From assembly GCF_002837275.1 (NCBI RefSeq), contig NZ_NXIF01000004.1, forward strand, positions 1 through 38,486: 38,486 bases of DNA. Reading direction: 5' to 3'. The stretch is from Malaciobacter halophilus. Lineage in GTDB: Bacteria; Campylobacterota; Campylobacteria; Campylobacterales; Arcobacteraceae. The translations under genes were made by a program, and so were the position numbers. Of the stretch, positions 869-10,702 are shown in pieces. How positions within the stretch are numbered: the stretch's first letter is position 1; every line of letters starts with the position of its first letter. The notes beneath the pieces were generated by a model that was not told where the DNA came from, did no database searches, and worked only from the letters and a program-made list of their open reading frames with translations.

Positions 869-1471
869 TTATGAACCATATGCTGAACTCCATGAATTTG
901 GAGTTGCAGTATGATTATGTCCTCTTGAAAGAACTCTTTTTCTATATATTTCAGAAACACTTTGAGAGTCTCCTACTAAAAGTGCATTTGTAGAACATAC
1001 AGCTGCACATAAAGGAACTTTTCCTTCTGCAATTCTATTTTGTCCGTACATATGTCTTTCATGTGTTGAGTTAGTCTCTAATGGACCACCAGCACACATT
1101 GTACATTTATCCATAGCACCTTTTGTACCAAATGCTCCATCTCTTGGAAACTGTGGAGCACCAAAAGGACAAGCATATAAACAATATCCACACCCAATAC
1201 AAGTCTGTTTATCATGAAGAACTATTCCATCTTCTCTGATATAGAAACAATCAACTGGACATACTTGCTCACAAGGCGCATCTGTACAATGCATACAAGC
1301 TATTGATAAAGAGTACTCTAAGCTCTCTTTTCCTTCATTTAATGTTATTACTTTTCTTCTACTAATTCCTGTTGGTAACTCATGAGCTTCAGAGCAAGCA
1401 ACCGAACAAGCAAAACACTCAATACATCTATCTTCATCACAATAAAATTTCATTCTTGACATTTCACTCAT
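869..1471 (-). CDS. fdhB: Formate dehydrogenase iron-sulfur subunit (beta)
   Basis: A 200-residue ferredoxin-type protein with four cysteine groups: CDEDRCIECFACSVAC near residues 11-26, CMHCTDAPCEQVC near 59-71, CIGCGYCLYAC near 91-101, and CTMC plus CAAVC near 123-158. This is the four [4Fe-4S] pattern of FdhB/FdnH electron-transfer subunits. It would carry electrons from FdhA to FdhC. There is no C-terminal membrane anchor, unlike E. coli FdnH; FdhC presumably holds it at the membrane. The start at 1471 is supported by an AGGAG ribosome site in the short gap after the fdhA stop. The fdhA-fdhB-fdhC order is the usual one in this phylum. Confidence 0.94.
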   Translation of the reverse strand: MSEMSRMKFYCDEDRCIECFACSVACSEAHELPTGISRRKVITLNEGKESLEYSLSIACMHCTDAPCEQVCPVDCFYIREDGIVLHDKQTCIGCGYCLYACPFGAPQFPRDGAFGTKGAMDKCTMCAGGPLETNSTHERHMYGQNRIAEGKVPLCAAVCSTNALLVGDSQSVSEIYRKRVLSRGHNHTATPNSWSSAYGS

Positions 1472-1480
1472 ACTTCACTC

Positions 1481-4321
1481 CTACGCTCTTTCAATCTTAC
1501 ATAGACCAGCATTAAACTCAGGAATCTGAGTAATAATATCAAATCCATAATTAGTAATAGTATTTGAACTCTCACCTATTGCATATGGTTTTGTTCCTTC
1601 TGGATAGTTTGCACTCATATCTACACCTTGCATCATCCCTGCAAAGTTATATGGTAAGGCTATTCTATCTGGTGTAACACTATGACTATAAATAGCTTTT
1701 ACTTTAATTTTTGTACCTTGAGGAGAGTGTAACCACATCATCTCACCATCTCTAATTCCATAACTTGCAGCTAACTCTGGATTAATATGTGCAAACATAT
1801 CAGGAGTAATATGTGAAAGATATTTACTTGTTCTTTCTAACATACCAGCACCACTTAAATTTACAACCCTCATTGTTACAAGCATTGTTGGGAAATCTTT
1901 TGACCAGTCTTGATGTTGCTGTTCAGATTTAAATCTTACATCAACTCTAAAGTTGTTTGTTTGGTCTTCATATGTTGGATACTTCATCACTAAATCATGT
2001 CTTGGAGAGTGAATTGGCTCTCTATGTTTTGGAACAGGATCAGGAAAAGTCCAAACTTTAACTCTAGCTTTTGCATTTCCATATACACAAACACCAGCTT
2101 CATTACATTTTTCTTGAATTATTCCACTAAAATCAACTTTCCAGTTTGCACCCATTTTTCTTTTTTCTTCTTCTGTTAATGTAATGTTTAAAACTTCTTC
2201 TATATTATCTTTAGTAATTTCAGGATATCCACCTTTTACTTTTGAACCTTTAACACTTACTCTTTCATCAGGAAGTAAAGAAACACCATCGTGTTCTAAA
2301 CCAAACCTATTTCTAAATCCCATACCACCTTGTTTTACAGGTGTATCAACATCATAAAGAATTGGACTTCCTGGGTGTTTTGTATCCCAACTAGGCCAAG
2401 GTAAACCATAATATTGGTTTTTCATTTTTCCATAACCTCTTAATGTTATTGGGTCAAATAGATGCCAATTTTCTTGATGCTCTCTTAATCTTTTTGCAGT
2501 CCAACCACCAAGACCAATAGTTTTAACTGTTCTTGCTACTTCATTAGCTGCATCATCAGGCCATATAAAATTATCTTTTACAACTTTTGGTTCTCCATCA
2601 ACAATATCCATTTTCATTGCTTTTATATACTCATCATAAAAACCAAATTTCTTTGCAAATTCAAACATTACTTCATGATCTGTTTTACTTTCATATAAAG
2701 GATCAACTACTTTACTTCTCCATTGAGAAGATCTATTAGTTGCTGTTACACTACCTTCTGTTTCAAACTGTGTTCCAACTGGTAAGATATAAATATCATC
2801 TTTTTTACTTGTAATAACTGCAGCTTCATTTACAAATGGCTCTGCAACAACCAATAAATCTAACTTATCTAAAGCCTCTTGAACTTTTGCAGTTTGTGCC
2901 ATAGATGTAATACCTGTACCTTGAACCCATAAAGCTCTAATAGGACTTGAAGAGTATGTTTTTTCTTCTTGTAATACTCCTTGCCACCATTTTGCAAGAG
3001 AGAATCCTTTTTCATTCATCCATTTTGGAGAGTGGAATCTTCCTTGTAACCAATTAAAATCAACACCCCATGCTTTTGCATAATACTTCCATGAAGTTTC
3101 ACTTAATCCATAATATCCAGGTAAACTATCAGCAAGACAACACATATCTGTTGAACCTTGAACATTATCATGTCCTCTAATAATGTTACATCCTCCACCT
3201 TTTTTACCCATATTTCCAAGTACTAATTGAAGTATTGGAAGGATTCTTGTATTTGATGTACCTGTACTATGTTGTGTAATCCCTAAAGCCCATACAACAG
3301 TAGTAGGTTTTGTTTTTGCTAAAAGTGTAGCAAGCTGAATAATTTGTTCAGCAGGAATTCCTGTAACATCAGATGTCTCTTCAGGAGTCCACTTTTTAGC
3401 TTCTTGTCTTATTTCATCCATTCCATATACACGGCTGTCAATAAACTCTTTATCTTCCCAACCATTTTTGAAAATAATATGTAATAATCCATAAATAAAC
3501 GCAACATCAGTACCAGTTCTAATTCTTAAATAGTGATCAGCCTTAGCTGCAGATTTAGTATAAACTGGATCAACAACAATTAGCTTAGCATTATTTCTAT
3601 CTTTTGCTTGAAGGAAATGTTTAAATCCTATTGGATTTGCTACAGCTGAATTTGCCCCAATCATTAAGATTGCTTTTGAGTTACCAACAACATCACCAAA
3701 GTGATTTGTCATAGCGCCATAACCCCATGTATTTGCCACACCGGCAACTGTTGCACTATGTCAAATTCTAGCTACGTGATCAATATTATTTGTACCCCAC
3801 ATTGCAGCAAACTTTCTAAAATAAAAAGCTTGTTGTAAATTAAATTTTGCAGATCCTAAAAACATTGCTGCATCTGGACCATTCTCTTTTCTAAACTTTA
3901 ACATCTTTTCAGATATTTCATTTATAGCTTGTTCCCAAGAGATTCTTTGCCATTTACCTGCCACTTTTTTTAAAGGATGTTTAACTCTTTGTTTACTTTT
4001 TACTAAATCAATTTGGTCAATACCTTTACAACAGTGACTTCCTTCACTAATTGGATGGTCTTGAGCAACATCTTGTCTTACCCAAACACCATTATGAACT
4101 TCTGCTACAATACCACAACCTGCAGAACAAATACTACAAATTGTTTTTACTTTCTTTGAACCTGGAAAAGGATTTTTTATCTCTTCTTTAGTCGCTTCTC
4201 TTACAGTATTACTAGAAGCAAACATTGATGTTGCCCCTACTCCTGCACCTATTGAAGCAAGTTTAAGAAAATTTCTTCTACCCATTTTCAAAGATAAATC
4301 ATTGAGTATATTTTTACCCAT
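1481..4321 (-). CDS. fdhA: Selenocysteine formate dehydrogenase catalytic subunit, UGA read-through at 3761-3763
   Basis: A single 946-residue protein whose frame is interrupted by one TGA at residue 187. The flanking residues VARI-U-HSATVAGVANTWGYG are the conserved selenocysteine site of formate dehydrogenases, so the TGA is selenocysteine, not a nonsense mutation. The N-terminus has a twin-arginine signal (GRRNFLK, residues 14-20), then a [4Fe-4S] motif CSICSAGC with a fourth Cys near residue 96, followed by molybdopterin-oxidoreductase domains and a C-terminal dinucleotide-binding domain. It oxidises formate to CO2 in the periplasm at a Mo/W-bis-MGD centre. AAGGAAG before the ATG at 4321 supports the start. 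Automatic annotation would split it into two pieces (1481-3739 and 3761-4321). The sel genes needed for its decoding lie at 12620-17172. Confidence 0.96.
3728..3763 (-). promoter_or_regulatory. bSECIS element of fdhA
   Basis: On the minus strand the UGA (3763-3761) is followed, after 13 bases, by a hairpin TTGCC-GGTGT-GGCAA (arms 3743-3747 and 3733-3737, loop 3738-3742). The spacing and the GGU in the loop resemble the E. coli fdhF SECIS, which is bound by the C-terminal domain of SelB. The pairing is seen directly; its function is inferred from position. Confidence 0.8.
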
Positions 4322-4332
4322 TATCTTCTTCC

Positions 4333-4539
4333 TTAATAACTAGCTTTATAAAAAGCTTCCCATTGAGCTGTTTTCTTATACAAAATCTCTTTTTTAGGAG
4401 ATTTTCCTATAACAACACCATTTGAACTTGCACTTTTACTACTATTACTACTTGCCATTGCAGCAGTAGCACTACCAGCAGCCACAAGCGCACTTGCACC
4501 TAGAGTTTTTTTAACAAAACTCCGTCTTTCTTCTTTCAT
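4333..4539 (-). CDS. Small Tat-signal protein of formate dehydrogenase loci
   Basis: A 68-residue protein starting KEERRSFVKKTLGASAL after the initiator Met, with a twin-arginine signal and an Ala-rich hydrophobic stretch, then a short polar tail. It matches the family found just upstream of fdhA in many proteobacteria (the 'formate dehydrogenase region TAT target' type), whose role is not known. I chose the ATG at 4539 over the longer frame from 4590 because a strong GGAGGAAG ribosome site lies directly before it and the twin-arginine motif then sits at the N-terminus. It is the first gene of the structural operon, 11 bases before fdhA, and the twin palindromes at 4615-4728 lie upstream. Confidence 0.8.
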   Translation of the reverse strand: MKEERRSFVKKTLGASALVAAGSATAAMASSNSSKSASSNGVVIGKSPKKEILYKKTAQWEAFYKASY

Positions 4540-4614
4540 GGCTTCCTCCAAGCAATTTTTCTCTCTTTTAACCAAAAAGAGATAAGTCAAAAAAAACTAT
4601 TTTCTCACTTATCT

Positions 4615-4645
4615 CTTTTAATATGCAAAATTTGCATATTAAAAG
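4615..4645. promoter_or_regulatory. Perfect 15-bp palindrome upstream of the fdh operon (operator 1)
   Basis: CTTTTAATATGCAAA (4615-4629), one centre base, then TTTGCATATTAAAAG (4631-4645). Its core ATATGCA-N5-TGCATAT (4621-4639) recurs exactly at 4708-4726. It lies 76-106 bases before the start of the small Tat-signal gene. It could be an operator or, less likely, a terminator for torD; the second copy with the same half-sites favours protein binding. Confidence 0.6.
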
Positions 4646-4705
4646 TGTCTAATCTTTTATTATTTATAAATTTTTTATACTACTTATACAAATTAATTAT
4701 TTTAT

Positions 4706-4728
4706 AAATATGCATTTTTTGCATATTT
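4706..4728. promoter_or_regulatory. Second ATATGCA-N5-TGCATAT palindrome (operator 2)
   Basis: AAATATGCA (4706-4714), TTTTT, TGCATATTT (4720-4728). The half-sites and the 5-base spacer are the same as in operator 1; the centres are 87 bases apart. It lies between the end of the TorD-like gene (4751) and the fdh structural operon. The regulator is unknown; the response regulator at 10037-10702 is one candidate by proximity only. Confidence 0.55.
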
Positions 4729-4750
4729 AAAATCTTTAAAAAAATCAAAT

Positions 4751-5455
4751 TTATAAACTTGTAACCTCATCAAAATTTCTTTTAGCTCTTTTTGTAAAAC
4801 CTTTTTTCTTTTGATGAAACAATTCTTGTTGTTCTCTATGTTTAGTTAAATCTGTTTTAGTAATATTTAAAAGTGCTCTTTCTAACTCTATAAATACTTT
4901 TAATAAAACTGCTACATCTTTATAAAATAAACTACACTCATGGTTATAAATATTTTCAATAAATGTATCTACTATTTCATTTAAAACTTGAATATAAACT
5001 TCATAGATTAACTCATTTTTATCTTTTGATAAATCCTCTTCTATTAGTTTTTGAATAAAATTCAAAATAAAACATATATGGTCTTCAGCCTCTTTAAAAC
5101 TATTACTATCTTTTCTAAATTTAGATTTTAGTACAAGATTAGTCATTTGAACTCTTTTTTCTCCATCATCTCTATCTTCACAATAGTATGAAGCAGTAAC
5201 AGGAATAAAAGTTGTACTTGGACTAAAAAATAGTTCATTATTCTCTTCTTTTAATCCCTCAATTCCTTTTGTGTTAAAAAACTTTTTCATATTAAAAAAA
5301 GCTTCTTTACTATACTCATCAATTGGATTTTGACTTAAAAAATCAACTGTTTTTACAATACTATTATATTGTTCTTCTTCATTTACAAATGAAAATAGTG
5401 AGCAAAACAGTCCATAATAGACTGCTCTTGCTTTATTTAATTCTTCATTTTTCAT
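4751..5455 (-). CDS. TorD/DmsD-family molybdoenzyme chaperone
   Basis: A 234-residue, all-helical, soluble protein. The segment EAEDHICFILNFIQKL (about residues 121-136) matches the conserved E-x-DHxxxxLxFxxxL signature of TorD/NarJ-type chaperones, and an FxPxTASYYCEDR-type segment precedes it. These cytoplasmic proteins bind the twin-arginine leader and help insert the molybdenum cofactor before Tat export. The likely client is FdhA, encoded just downstream. Its ATG overlaps the stop of the polyferredoxin gene by four bases (ATGA), so the two are co-transcribed. The C-terminal tail is rich in Lys/Arg. Confidence 0.85.
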   Translation of the reverse strand: MKNEELNKARAVYYGLFCSLFSFVNEEEQYNSIVKTVDFLSQNPIDEYSKEAFFNMKKFFNTKGIEGLKEENNELFFSPSTTFIPVTASYYCEDRDDGEKRVQMTNLVLKSKFRKDSNSFKEAEDHICFILNFIQKLIEEDLSKDKNELIYEVYIQVLNEIVDTFIENIYNHECSLFYKDVAVLLKVFIELERALLNITKTDLTKHREQQELFHQKKKGFTKRAKRNFDEVTSL

Positions 5456-8455: not shown

Positions 8456-10047
8456 TGTTTAAAAAAATACTTTCATACTTTGATAACTTTAATTTTGCAC
8501 TAAAAACAAATATTTTAATTTTTATTATTTCAGGAGGAATGTTAAGTATTGTTGTACTATCTCTTATGTCGACTTTTTCTATTAAATATGATTTTGACAA
8601 ACTTTATGAACAAAGAACAAAACCATTAATAAAACTAGAGAATATAAAAGATACTTACACAGTAAATATTCAAGATACATTATATGATATTGAGAATAAA
8701 AGCATAACATATGAACAAGCAACAGAAGTAATCAATCTAGCCTTACAATTAGTTGAAACAAACTGGAAAGAGTATAAACGCTCAAACGAAGTTAAACAGC
8801 CTGCTATTTATATTGGTGATATTATAAAAAAGTTTTTAGTAACACAACAACAATATTATAAAAATGAGACTTTACATAAAAGTATTTCTGAAAATATTGA
8901 TAAAAAGATGTTAAATATAAATGCAAGACTTCATAACTTAGAGATTGCTAATCATAATAAAAACCTATCTAAAGAGTTTGCAAAACTTCATCTTGAAATC
9001 AATGCAATAAATATCTATATTACAAGTTTAATTAACTATGATTTAACACTTGCATTAAATGAAAAAAGAGATACAGAACAAGTTTTTGAAGTAATTATAG
9101 CAGTTTCTATGTTCTCAATAGTTTTAATTTTCCTATTTTCAGTAATTTTATCTGTTCTTTTGATTAATCACTTTAAAAGATTACATAAACTTCTTGAAGC
9201 AAAAGTAGAAAGTAAAACAAGAGAGCTTGTTGAACTAAATAACTCACTTGAAAAAAGAGTAGTACAAGAGGTTAAAAACAATAGAAAAAAAGATATTATT
9301 ATGTTTCAGCAAGCAAGGCTTGCTAGTTTAGGTGAAATGCTTAATAATATTGCCCACCAATGGAGACAACCACTTGGTTCAATTACTATGATAATACAAA
9401 GTTTTCAAACTAAAATGCAACTTGGAAAATTAACAGATGAGTTTATTGACGATAAAGTAAATGATGCTTTATTTTTAGCTGAAAATATGTCAAATACACT
9501 TGATGATTTCAAAAACTTCTTTTCTCCTGATAAAACAAAAAAAGAGTTTGGTATAAAAGAGTGCCTTGAACACTCTTTTGAATTATCAAAATATGCTTTA
9601 GAAAAAGCAAGTATAAAAACTTATTTAACCATAAAAAAAGATATAAAAATAAATAGTTATTACAATGAATTATCCCATGTATTTTTAAATTTGATAAATA
9701 ACTCTAAAGACGCTTTATGCACAAATGTAAATAAAAATGATAGAATTATCAAAGTTATTGTAAAACAGTATAAAGATGATGTAGTAATTAATTTTATTGA
9801 TAATGGTGGAGGAATACCCCAAGATATTGCTCCAAAAATCTTTGAGCCATATTATACTACTAAATATAAAAGTGCTGGTACAGGAATTGGACTTTATATG
9901 TCTAAACAGATTGTTGAAAAACATATGTATGGTTCAATATACCAAAAAAATATAATTCATAAAATAGATAAAATAAACAACTATCATTGTAGTCTATTTA
10001 TCATAAAAATACCAATTTTAGAAGAAGAGGAAAACCATGAAAAATAG
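8455..10047 (+). CDS. Membrane sensor histidine kinase
   Basis: 530 residues: transmembrane segment about 19-42, a helical periplasmic domain of about 165 residues (four-helix-bundle-like), a second transmembrane segment about 213-240, a coiled coil to about 285, then the kinase core. The H-box is LGEMLNNIAHQWRQPL with phospho-acceptor H301. The N-box is in HVFLNLINNSKDAL, the G1 box is DNGGGIP and the G2 box GTGIGLYMSK. All catalytic elements look intact. The gene starts inside the stop of the binding-protein gene and overlaps the response regulator gene by 11 bases, making a three-part sensing unit. Confidence 0.93.
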   Translation: MFKKILSYFDNFNFALKTNILIFIISGGMLSIVVLSLMSTFSIKYDFDKLYEQRTKPLIKLENIKDTYTVNIQDTLYDIENKSITYEQATEVINLALQLVETNWKEYKRSNEVKQPAIYIGDIIKKFLVTQQQYYKNETLHKSISENIDKKMLNINARLHNLEIANHNKNLSKEFAKLHLEINAINIYITSLINYDLTLALNEKRDTEQVFEVIIAVSMFSIVLIFLFSVILSVLLINHFKRLHKLLEAKVESKTRELVELNNSLEKRVVQEVKNNRKKDIIMFQQARLASLGEMLNNIAHQWRQPLGSITMIIQSFQTKMQLGKLTDEFIDDKVNDALFLAENMSNTLDDFKNFFSPDKTKKEFGIKECLEHSFELSKYALEKASIKTYLTIKKDIKINSYYNELSHVFLNLINNSKDALCTNVNKNDRIIKVIVKQYKDDVVINFIDNGGGIPQDIAPKIFEPYYTTKYKSAGTGIGLYMSKQIVEKHMYGSIYQKNIIHKIDKINNYHCSLFIIKIPILEEEENHEK

Positions 10048-10702
10048 AGATTTAAATATATTAAACAAATTTAATATTTTATATCTTGAAGATGATGAAA
10101 ATCTACTAAAACATACAAAAGATGTACTTGAAGATTTTGTAAATAATATTTTTGCAGTAAAAACATCAAAAGAGGCTTTAGATATTTTAAAAAATAAAAA
10201 AGTTGATGTAATAATATCAGATATTTTACTTGAAAATGAAAATGGAATTGATTTTTTGAAACTAATTAAAGAACAAAAAGGAATATCAATTCCAACTATT
10301 TTAACCACTGCACATACAGATACAAAATATCTACTTGATGCAATTAAATTAAAAGTTGAAAACTATATAGTAAAACCAATAAATATAAAAGAGCTTTTAA
10401 ATACTTTACACGATATTTTACTTCCCGTAGTTCAAGAAAAACAAATAACAAGAAATAATCATGTAATAAGAACAATCTCAGCCATTACAGATAGTAAACA
10501 AGTTGATATAATCAAGTTTATAATAAATAGTCTTGATAATAATAATATTTTTTCAGCTTCATATAGTGATATTATGGAGCATATTAATATTTCCAAACCA
10601 ACTTTAATTAAACTTTTTAAAGAGTTAGCAGAAAAAAATATTTTAATAAAAATCCAACATAAAACATATAGATTTAATGAACAAGCATTAAAAGAGATTT
10701 AA
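10037..10702 (+). CDS. Response regulator with winged-helix output domain
   Basis: 221 residues. The receiver domain (about 10-130) has acidic pocket D19/D20, phospho-acceptor D62 in VIISDILL, a conserved T near 91 and K113 in YIVKPI. The C-terminal part (about 150-221) contains YSDIMEHINISKPTLIKLFKELAEKNIL, a helix-turn-helix or winged-helix reading head of a kind not typical of OmpR or NarL. It is the cognate partner of the kinase at 8455, with an 11-base gene overlap. Its targets are unknown. Its stop shares the bases TTAA with the stop of the convergent MerP-like gene. Confidence 0.9.
   Translation: MKNRDLNILNKFNILYLEDDENLLKHTKDVLEDFVNNIFAVKTSKEALDILKNKKVDVIISDILLENENGIDFLKLIKEQKGISIPTILTTAHTDTKYLLDAIKLKVENYIVKPINIKELLNTLHDILLPVVQEKQITRNNHVIRTISAITDSKQVDIIKFIINSLDNNNIFSASYSDIMEHINISKPTLIKLFKELAEKNILIKIQHKTYRFNEQALKEI

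What the first reader, a model, noticed from the sequence alone, without database searches (positions are those of the whole stretch)
4615..4728. Twin operators ATATGCA-N5-TGCATAT before the formate dehydrogenase operon
Two perfect palindromes with the same half-sites and the same 5-base spacer, centres 87 bases apart, fill the only sizeable gap in the locus. The first extends to 15 bp per arm. Such identical spacing is unlikely by chance and suggests a dimeric regulator, maybe with looping. I do not recognise the motif as any named regulator's site.
Basis: seen in the sequence. Interest (0 to 1): 0.55.

Follow-up and report, generated by a model that had tools for sequence, protein, structure and literature searches.

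The report
Operators of a tungsten/formate-dehydrogenase regulon
Two matching DNA palindromes in front of a selenium-containing formate dehydrogenase are most likely docking sites for a little-studied relative of the molybdenum regulator ModE, and the same sites recur before formate dehydrogenase and tungsten-uptake genes in many Campylobacterota and some sulfur-cycling Desulfobacterota.

Summary
The twin palindromes are real: two exact ATATGCA-N5-TGCATAT sites, centres 87 bp apart. The genome has three exact copies; about 0.04 are expected. The third belongs to a different, MarR-type element. Relatives show a conserved operator, WAATATGC-N7-GCATATTW, before formate dehydrogenase (fdh) operons, fdhD and tungstate-transport genes. 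Of 80 FDH loci fetched by protein similarity, 26 have a site with at most 1 mismatch; shuffles give 0.05. Of 52 distinct sites fetched by motif, 44 lie beside fdh/W-type genes. The best regulator candidate is not the nearby response regulator but ModE_s, a short TOBE-less ModE-like protein encoded with fdhD, moeA, tup and wtp genes on another contig. ModE_s is in 48 of 54 motif-positive genomes; four of six exceptions have coding-region hits. Of nine Desulfobacterota genomes tested, 4 of 5 with a site and 0 of 4 without have it. The same genome's classical ModE has E. coli-type boxes at its mod operon, so two ModE systems with different operators probably coexist. Binding, effector and sign are untested; 67 ModE_s genomes lack the strict site.

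The parts
4621..4639 (.). proximal operator ATATGCA-N5-TGCATAT; extended perfect palindrome 4615-4645
   Evidence: conserved in relatives
4708..4726 (.). distal operator ATATGCA-N5-TGCATAT; extended palindrome 4706-4728
   Evidence: two sites with at most 1 mismatch in 9 of 80 FDH loci, 0 in shuffles
4575..4619 (-). leader hairpin (AAAAGAGATAAGT / ACTTATCTCTTTT) between the proximal site and the fdh start codon
4561..4569 (-). AAAAGAGAG, partial repeat of the hairpin's 5' arm, able to pair with its 3' arm (possible alternative hairpin)
4333..4539 (-). small Tat-signal protein gene, first gene behind the operators (likely ATG 4539, SD 4545-4549; the mechanical ORF starts at TTG 4590); no Pfam family
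1481..4321 (-). fdhA, selenocysteine formate dehydrogenase alpha subunit (TGA = U187; weak SECIS_3 match 3708-3766, below Rfam's gathering score)
869..1471 (-). fdhB, iron-sulfur subunit
   Evidence: 4Fe-4S domains; name from position
4751..5455 (-). TorD-type chaperone, gene upstream of the operators
   Evidence: PF02613
5452..7131 (-). multi-4Fe-4S protein, first gene of the minus-strand cluster

Best explanation
The palindromes are DNA operators of a tungsten/molybdenum-linked formate-dehydrogenase regulon. The most likely binder is ModE_s, a 123-aa protein with only a ModE/LysR-type winged helix-turn-helix, encoded in the same genome in the gene run fdhD-X-modE_s-iscS-like-moeA-tupABC-wtpABC. 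As a dimer it would place one helix in each ATATGC half-site (a T-N11-A, LysR-type box). Lacking the TOBE metal domain, it probably receives its signal through X, the five-cysteine protein encoded just before it and fused to it in other Campylobacterota (the Cj1507c type). The signal would be W/Mo or cofactor supply, coupling FDH, its sulfurtransferase FdhD, cofactor genes and W/Mo uptake. Shown here: the sites, their conservation, the gene contexts, the co-occurrence, the gene fusion. Inferred: binding by ModE_s, X as sensor, the signal, the operon. Open: repression or activation; sites 10-19 bp before fdhD's start codon in relatives look like a repressor's, whereas the fdh twins could do either.
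For: (1) In the genus, all 7 exact sites of four other genomes lie before FDH operons (within about 320 bp of the first gene); one of the 6 genomes searched (G004) has no exact site but two one-mismatch sites at the same place. (2) Of 80 FDH loci fetched by protein similarity, 26 have a site with at most 1 mismatch in 12 fixed bases before the Tat gene or fdhA, 9 have two; 40 dinucleotide shuffles give on average 0.05 and 0. (3) Phylum-wide strict pattern: 54 of 298 genomes, backwards control 1. Of 52 distinct sites examined (89 in all), 44 are within 450 bp of fdh/fdhD/fdhF-like/selB/tup/wtp-type genes, 3 are other intergenic, 5 in annotated frames; one of the 5 is the TonB receptor with a probably over-long start. 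(4) ModE_s (E<1e-22) in 115 of 298 genomes: 48 of 54 motif-positive, Fisher p 3e-17; genus level p 9e-4; genus g11: 4 of 4 with ModE_s and 0 of 5 without have the motif; genus g22: 23 of 32 against 1 of 6, p 0.02 (tables typed by hand, threshold chosen after seeing the list). (5) Nine Desulfobacterota genomes tested: 4 of 5 with a site have ModE_s, 0 of 4 without. (6) modE_s is itself behind a target site: in relatives an exact site lies before fdhD. (7) Own genome, strict pattern with at most 1 mismatch: 9 sites, control 0; 6 of 9 on the two contigs that hold FDH and W genes, 3.5% of the genome. (8) ModE_s matches TIGR00637 best (71.3 bits, below the 98.5 cut-off) and ModE structures 2ijl, 1o7l, 1b9m; the fold model of the fused form agrees. 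(9) Passages of PMC7011364 (citing Taveirne 2009, which I did not see): Cj1507c lies beside fdhD, is involved in repressing modABC and tunABC, and has no metal-binding domain.
Against: No binding or expression data. 67 of 115 ModE_s genomes have no strict site, notably C. jejuni and genus g29: L058 has the fused ModE but no site at up to 3 mismatches before fdh. 54 of 80 FDH loci have no site with at most 1 mismatch in the stretch searched, some being paralogues or cut contigs. G179 and G328 have a site but no ModE_s; L045/G382 likewise. The host's own fdhD and second-FDH sites each have a half-site mismatch. Related genomes are not independent, so the p-values overstate. One of the four site-less Desulfobacterota comparisons (L089) is a more distant FDH (54%), and some assemblies may be incomplete. 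Repressing a W enzyme when W is plentiful would be odd; the sign is unknown.
Confidence: 0.78

Rival explanations
1. A MarR-family regulator (gene at L001:1543-1980) binds the sites, since the third exact genomic copy lies 24 bp before that gene.
For: Exact match before the MarR gene; 17 of 61 distinct exact sites examined in the family lie beside MarR genes.
Against: The MarR site is two near head-to-tail copies of a TTGCATATGCAA-like palindrome (flanks ttg[c/t] / [g/a]caa invariant in 13 unique sites), whereas FDH sites have A/T flanks. MarR at E<=1e-15 is in 11 of 54 motif-positive genomes. The MarR gene precedes a Bcr/CflA-type efflux gene.
Confidence: 0.04
2. The response regulator at 10037-10702, with its histidine kinase and periplasmic binding protein, binds the sites.
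For: Encoded in the same window; the binding-protein gene also neighbours fdh in some relatives.
Against: Present in 26 of 54 motif-positive and 82 of 244 motif-negative genomes, phi 0.12; in none of the motif-bearing genomes of genus g22.
Confidence: 0.05
3. The long, TOBE-containing ModE (ModE_L, G000:C14:8927) binds these sites as a molybdate sensor.
For: It is over the ModE family cut-off and sits beside modA.
Against: Its own promoter region carries two E. coli-type ModE boxes (4 of 22 mismatches each) and no ATATGC-N7-GCATAT within 2 mismatches in the 15 kb held; the fdh gap's best E. coli-type match has 10 mismatches.
Confidence: 0.06
4. The palindromes act as RNA hairpins (terminator, attenuator or protein-binding stem) rather than as DNA operators.
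For: Both fold as RNA with z about -4, as any perfect palindrome would; in L028 and L060 the proximal palindrome forms the core of the leader hairpin.
Against: The letters, not only the pairing, recur in 26 of 80 FDH loci that were fetched without the motif and before unrelated genes; a separate leader hairpin of variable sequence carries the RNA-like signature; no terminator.
Confidence: 0.06

Closest known systems
Campylobacter jejuni ModE-like regulator Cj1507c (passages in PMC7011364; Taveirne 2009 cited there, not seen)
   Same: Encoded beside fdhD; ModE/LysR-type HTH with no TOBE domain; N-terminal X domain homologous to the separate X protein here (L058 fusion, 44% to L050); linked to Mo and W uptake
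   Different: Split into two genes here; C. jejuni fdh lacks the site; my searches listed no published operator for it
Escherichia coli ModE and its box ATCGCTATATA-N6-TATATAACGAT (consensus as printed in PMC2700814, passage)
   Same: Same HTH family and fold; Mo/W-linked targets
   Different: ModE_s has no TOBE domain; the operator differs (10 of 22 mismatches in the fdh gap against 4 at the host's own mod promoter)
LysR-type boxes (T-N11-A), recalled
   Same: TGCA-N5-TGCA is a T-N11-A palindrome; the HTH is LysR-type (PF00126)
   Different: No LysR effector domain found in ModE_s
TunR, tungstate regulator of sulfate reducers (recalled, not read)
   Same: W/Mo-linked regulation in Desulfobacterota
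   Different: Recalled as having a XerC/D-like DNA-binding domain and a 30-bp motif; not compared here

Membership tests
Classical ModE (TIGR00637 + TOBE/Mop) | ModE-type HTH domain over the curated cut-off | tested here: not met
   ModE_s scores 71.3 bits, cut-off 98.5; still its best NCBIfam match
Classical ModE (TIGR00637 + TOBE/Mop) | C-terminal TOBE/Mop metal-binding domains | tested here: not met
   None in ModE_s; two stretches in ModE_L
Classical ModE (TIGR00637 + TOBE/Mop) | Operator of the type ATCGCTATATA-N6-TATATAACGAT | tested here: not met
   10 of 22 mismatches in 4591-4750; 4 of 22, twice, before ModE_L-modA
Cj1507c-type ModE-like regulator | fdhD-linked gene with ModE-type HTH and no TOBE | tested here: met
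Cj1507c-type ModE-like regulator | X domain fused to or encoded beside the HTH | tested here: met
   C33 and C64 in 10 of 10 rows, C97, C126, C130 in at least 90%
Cj1507c-type ModE-like regulator | Represses Mo and W transporter genes | not testable with these tools
   Reported for C. jejuni in PMC7011364 (passages)
LysR-type T-N11-A operator (recalled definition) | Dyad with T and A 11 bases apart | tested here: met
   TGCA-N5-TGCA in both sites
MarR operator TTGCATATGCAA | 12-bp palindrome in two tandem copies | tested here: not met
   Flanks differ at the fdh sites
Intrinsic terminator | Hairpin followed by a T-run in gene direction | tested here: not met

The most novel reading that the evidence does not exclude
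One cell runs two ModE systems with different operators: a classical oxyanion-sensing ModE on its modA operon, and a TOBE-less ModE_s paired with the five-cysteine protein X that reads the state of the tungsten cofactor or of FdhD-borne sulfur (not free oxyanion) and sets selenocysteine FDH, FdhD, moeA, tup/wtp importers and, in this genome, a TonB receptor (possibly a W/Mo route, though its neighbouring FecCD permease scores best as vitamin B12 BtuC). Downstream, a bistable leader RNA adds a second control layer to fdh.
Probability: 0.22. Interest if true: 0.78.

Novelty: new variant of a known kind. Interest (0 to 1): 0.6.

Why it matters
It supplies a precise operator, a regulator candidate and a target list for formate dehydrogenase in Campylobacterota; a 2019 review states that it is still unclear how several of C. 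jejuni's respiratory pathways are regulated (PMC6682613, passages). It also gives a testable account of ModE-like proteins without a metal domain: which DNA they bind, and X as the likely sensor. It predicts two insulated Mo/W regulators in one cell and links W uptake, cofactor sulfuration and selenoprotein FDH.

Tried and rejected
Rejected: the response regulator, MarR, ModE_L and a terminator as explanations (see rivals). DNA looping by helical phasing: 18 twin spacings typed (some second sites have 2 mismatches), collapsed to 9, gave no phasing (p=0.70); without collapsing, periods of 10.5 and 11 give R 0.44 and 0.61, but these are near-duplicates. Sigma-70 promoter scan found nothing, so the promoter is unplaced. 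Rfam gave only a sub-threshold SECIS_3. X alone: fold model mean pLDDT 71, best PDB match E 0.77. Literature searches listed no paper that by title or start of abstract describes this motif or an fdh operator of a ModE-like protein; this covers only the held open-licence library and the rows shown (for example 15 of 374, 10 of 480). MAFFT alignments A3 and A4 of leader RNAs misplace stems by a base in some rows, so I made no column-based covariation count and used per-sequence folding instead. The core of the logo is fixed by the search pattern, so only its flanks and spacer are informative, and the flanks are partly selected too. The reversed-pattern control of the genome search contains CpG and is weak for relaxed matching.

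Full report
THE OBSERVATION. The first extends to 15-nt arms. The host genome (2.75 Mb, 111 contigs) has three exact copies, the control pattern none; 0.04 are expected from base composition. Relaxed matches are mostly noise: of the twelve one-mismatch sites (L004-L015), 11 are in coding frames, all but L005.

GENE SETTING. On the minus strand: a 4Fe-4S protein, TorD chaperone, [sites], small Tat-signal protein, fdhA with one in-frame TGA (U187), fdhB. The likely start codon of the Tat-signal gene is ATG 4539 with GGAGG at 4545-4549.

CONSERVATION. In the genus, exact sites occur in 5 of 6 genomes; all 7 sites of the four other positive genomes lie before FDH operons, including second FDH copies. 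In 80 FDH loci fetched from named genomes by FdhA similarity, 26 have at least one site with at most 1 mismatch (of 12 fixed bases) before the Tat gene or fdhA, and 9 have two; 40 shuffles of the same stretches give means of 0.05 and 0. The other 54 include paralogues and cut contigs. Positive loci include Desulfobacterota (L035, L036, L038, L045, L056). In the host's family (f1, Arcobacteraceae by its named relatives) the exact pattern is in 53 of 101 genomes. Of 61 distinct sites examined (96 in all), 25 are beside FDH/W-type genes, 17 beside MarR genes, 19 in coding frames. Across the phylum the strict pattern WAATATGC-N7-GCATATTW is in 54 of 298 genomes, the control in 1; 44 of 52 distinct sites examined (89 in all) are beside FDH/W-type genes. 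Gene labels come from BLAST to window and reference proteins; WtpC-type hits at 22-27% identity may be other ABC ATPases. In 97 unique FDH/W sites the flanks are A/T at -2 and A at -1 (177 of 194) and the spacer is A/T-rich; the core is fixed by the search and the flanks are partly selected.

TWO ELEMENTS SHARE THE CORE. The third exact copy precedes a MarR gene followed by a Bcr/CflA-type efflux gene. There the sequence is two adjacent TTGCATATGCAA palindromes; in 13 unique sites the flanks ttg[c/t] / [g/a]caa do not vary and differ from those at fdh. It is a separate system.

THE REGULATOR. A ModE family search of the host found ModE_L (260 aa, HTH plus TOBE, beside modA) and ModE_s (123 aa, HTH only), besides two weaker hits. 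ModE_s lies on contig C31 in a run of genes: second FDH, fdhD, X, modE_s, an IscS-like gene, moeA, tupABC, wtpABC, TonB, a FecCD-type ABC importer, a TonB receptor, then a formate hydrogenlyase-like cluster (by eye) with a FocA-like protein and an FDH-alpha frame that stops after 140 residues. By NCBIfam, WtpA is over its cut-off; TupA, TupB, TupC and FocA are best matches below theirs; the FecCD permease scores best as vitamin B12 BtuC, also below cut-off. Own-genome sites with at most 1 mismatch to the strict pattern: 9, of which 6 on C31 and C64, together 3.5% of the genome: two in the window, one before the second TorD, one before fdhD, one before the TonB receptor's probable start, one inside the FdhF-like gene (probably chance); the other three lie on C22, C47 (coding) and C97.

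CO-OCCURRENCE. ModE_s (E<1e-22) is in 115 of 298 genomes: 48 with and 67 without a strict site; 6 motif-positive genomes lack it, 177 have neither. Four of the six (G204, G315, G332, G355) have only coding-frame hits; G179 and G328 remain unexplained, and a second query did not find the protein there. The response regulator (26 of 54) and MarR (11 of 54) fit far worse. Among nine Desulfobacterota genomes tested, G378, G379, G380 and G381 have both; G382 has a site only; G383, G384, G385 and G386 have neither a site at the fdh examined nor ModE_s at E<1e-22 (G383's best is 6e-15). C. jejuni (G387) has the fused ModE but no site.

TWO ModE SYSTEMS. Before ModE_L-modA lie two boxes matching the E. 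coli consensus printed in PMC2700814 at 18 of 22 positions each; the fdh gap has none. The two paralogues therefore probably read different DNA.

MECHANISM. ModE_s resembles ModE structures by sequence and fold and would bind as a dimer. It has no metal domain; X, separate here and fused in L050, L054, L058 and L073, carries conserved cysteines and is the natural sensor candidate. Whether it senses W/Mo, the pterin cofactor or sulfur from FdhD is inference. Sites 10-19 bp before fdhD's start in most relatives seen (121 bp in L142) suit repression; the twin sites at fdh suit either sign. The twin spacing varies and is not phased.

A LEADER RNA NOTICED ON THE WAY. Between the proximal site and the start codon lies a hairpin (4575-4619, minus strand) followed by a partial repeat of its 5' arm. 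Of 59 leaders collected I kept 39 by eye, dropping 20 that were near-duplicates or had no evident hairpin; 35 of these 39 fold at z below -2 (median -4.6). That figure is biased by the choice. Stem sequences differ widely while pairing is kept. In L028 and L060 the operator itself forms the upper stem. In the window no Rfam family matches it.

VERDICT. A real, conserved operator of a known kind of regulator with a probable new binding specificity; direct evidence of binding is missing.

Noticed in passing
window 4561-4619 (minus strand); the 39 leaders listed: Leader hairpin of variable sequence before the fdh Tat gene, followed by a partial repeat of its 5' arm that could form an alternative hairpin; in L028 and L060 the operator palindrome is its core. 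No Rfam match in the window.
   Followed up: partly
G000:C31:15122-21455 (L109, L110): TonB, a FecCD-type ABC importer (best NCBIfam match vitamin B12 BtuC) and a TonB-dependent receptor beside tupABC/wtpABC; an exact strict-pattern site lies just before the receptor's probable start. W/Mo or B12 uptake; such a site was not listed in G002-G005.
   Followed up: partly
L104:1379-1442 (G000:C14): Two E. coli-type ModE boxes in tandem before the classical modE-modA operon of the same genome.
   Followed up: yes
L001:1498-1530 and 17 distinct family sites: MarR gene preceded by two adjacent TTGCATATGCAA-like palindromes, a conserved element that mimics the fdh site; next gene is a Bcr/CflA-type efflux transporter.
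   Followed up: partly
L105:1034-1450; N-terminal half of L050:11283-12020: X, a protein with no convincing Pfam or NCBIfam match, with five conserved cysteines and two similar helical repeats, fused to the ModE-like HTH in several Campylobacterota.
   Followed up: partly
L220, L221, L224, L227, L228, L230, L231 (genus g22): Strict-pattern sites 103 bp before an FdhA-like frame that stops after 140 residues, as expected for selenocysteine 140 of FdhF (recalled); not checked with a recoded translation.
   Followed up: no
G179, G328: Genomes with a strict-pattern site but no detectable ModE_s; either the regulator is lost or another protein uses the site.
   Followed up: partly
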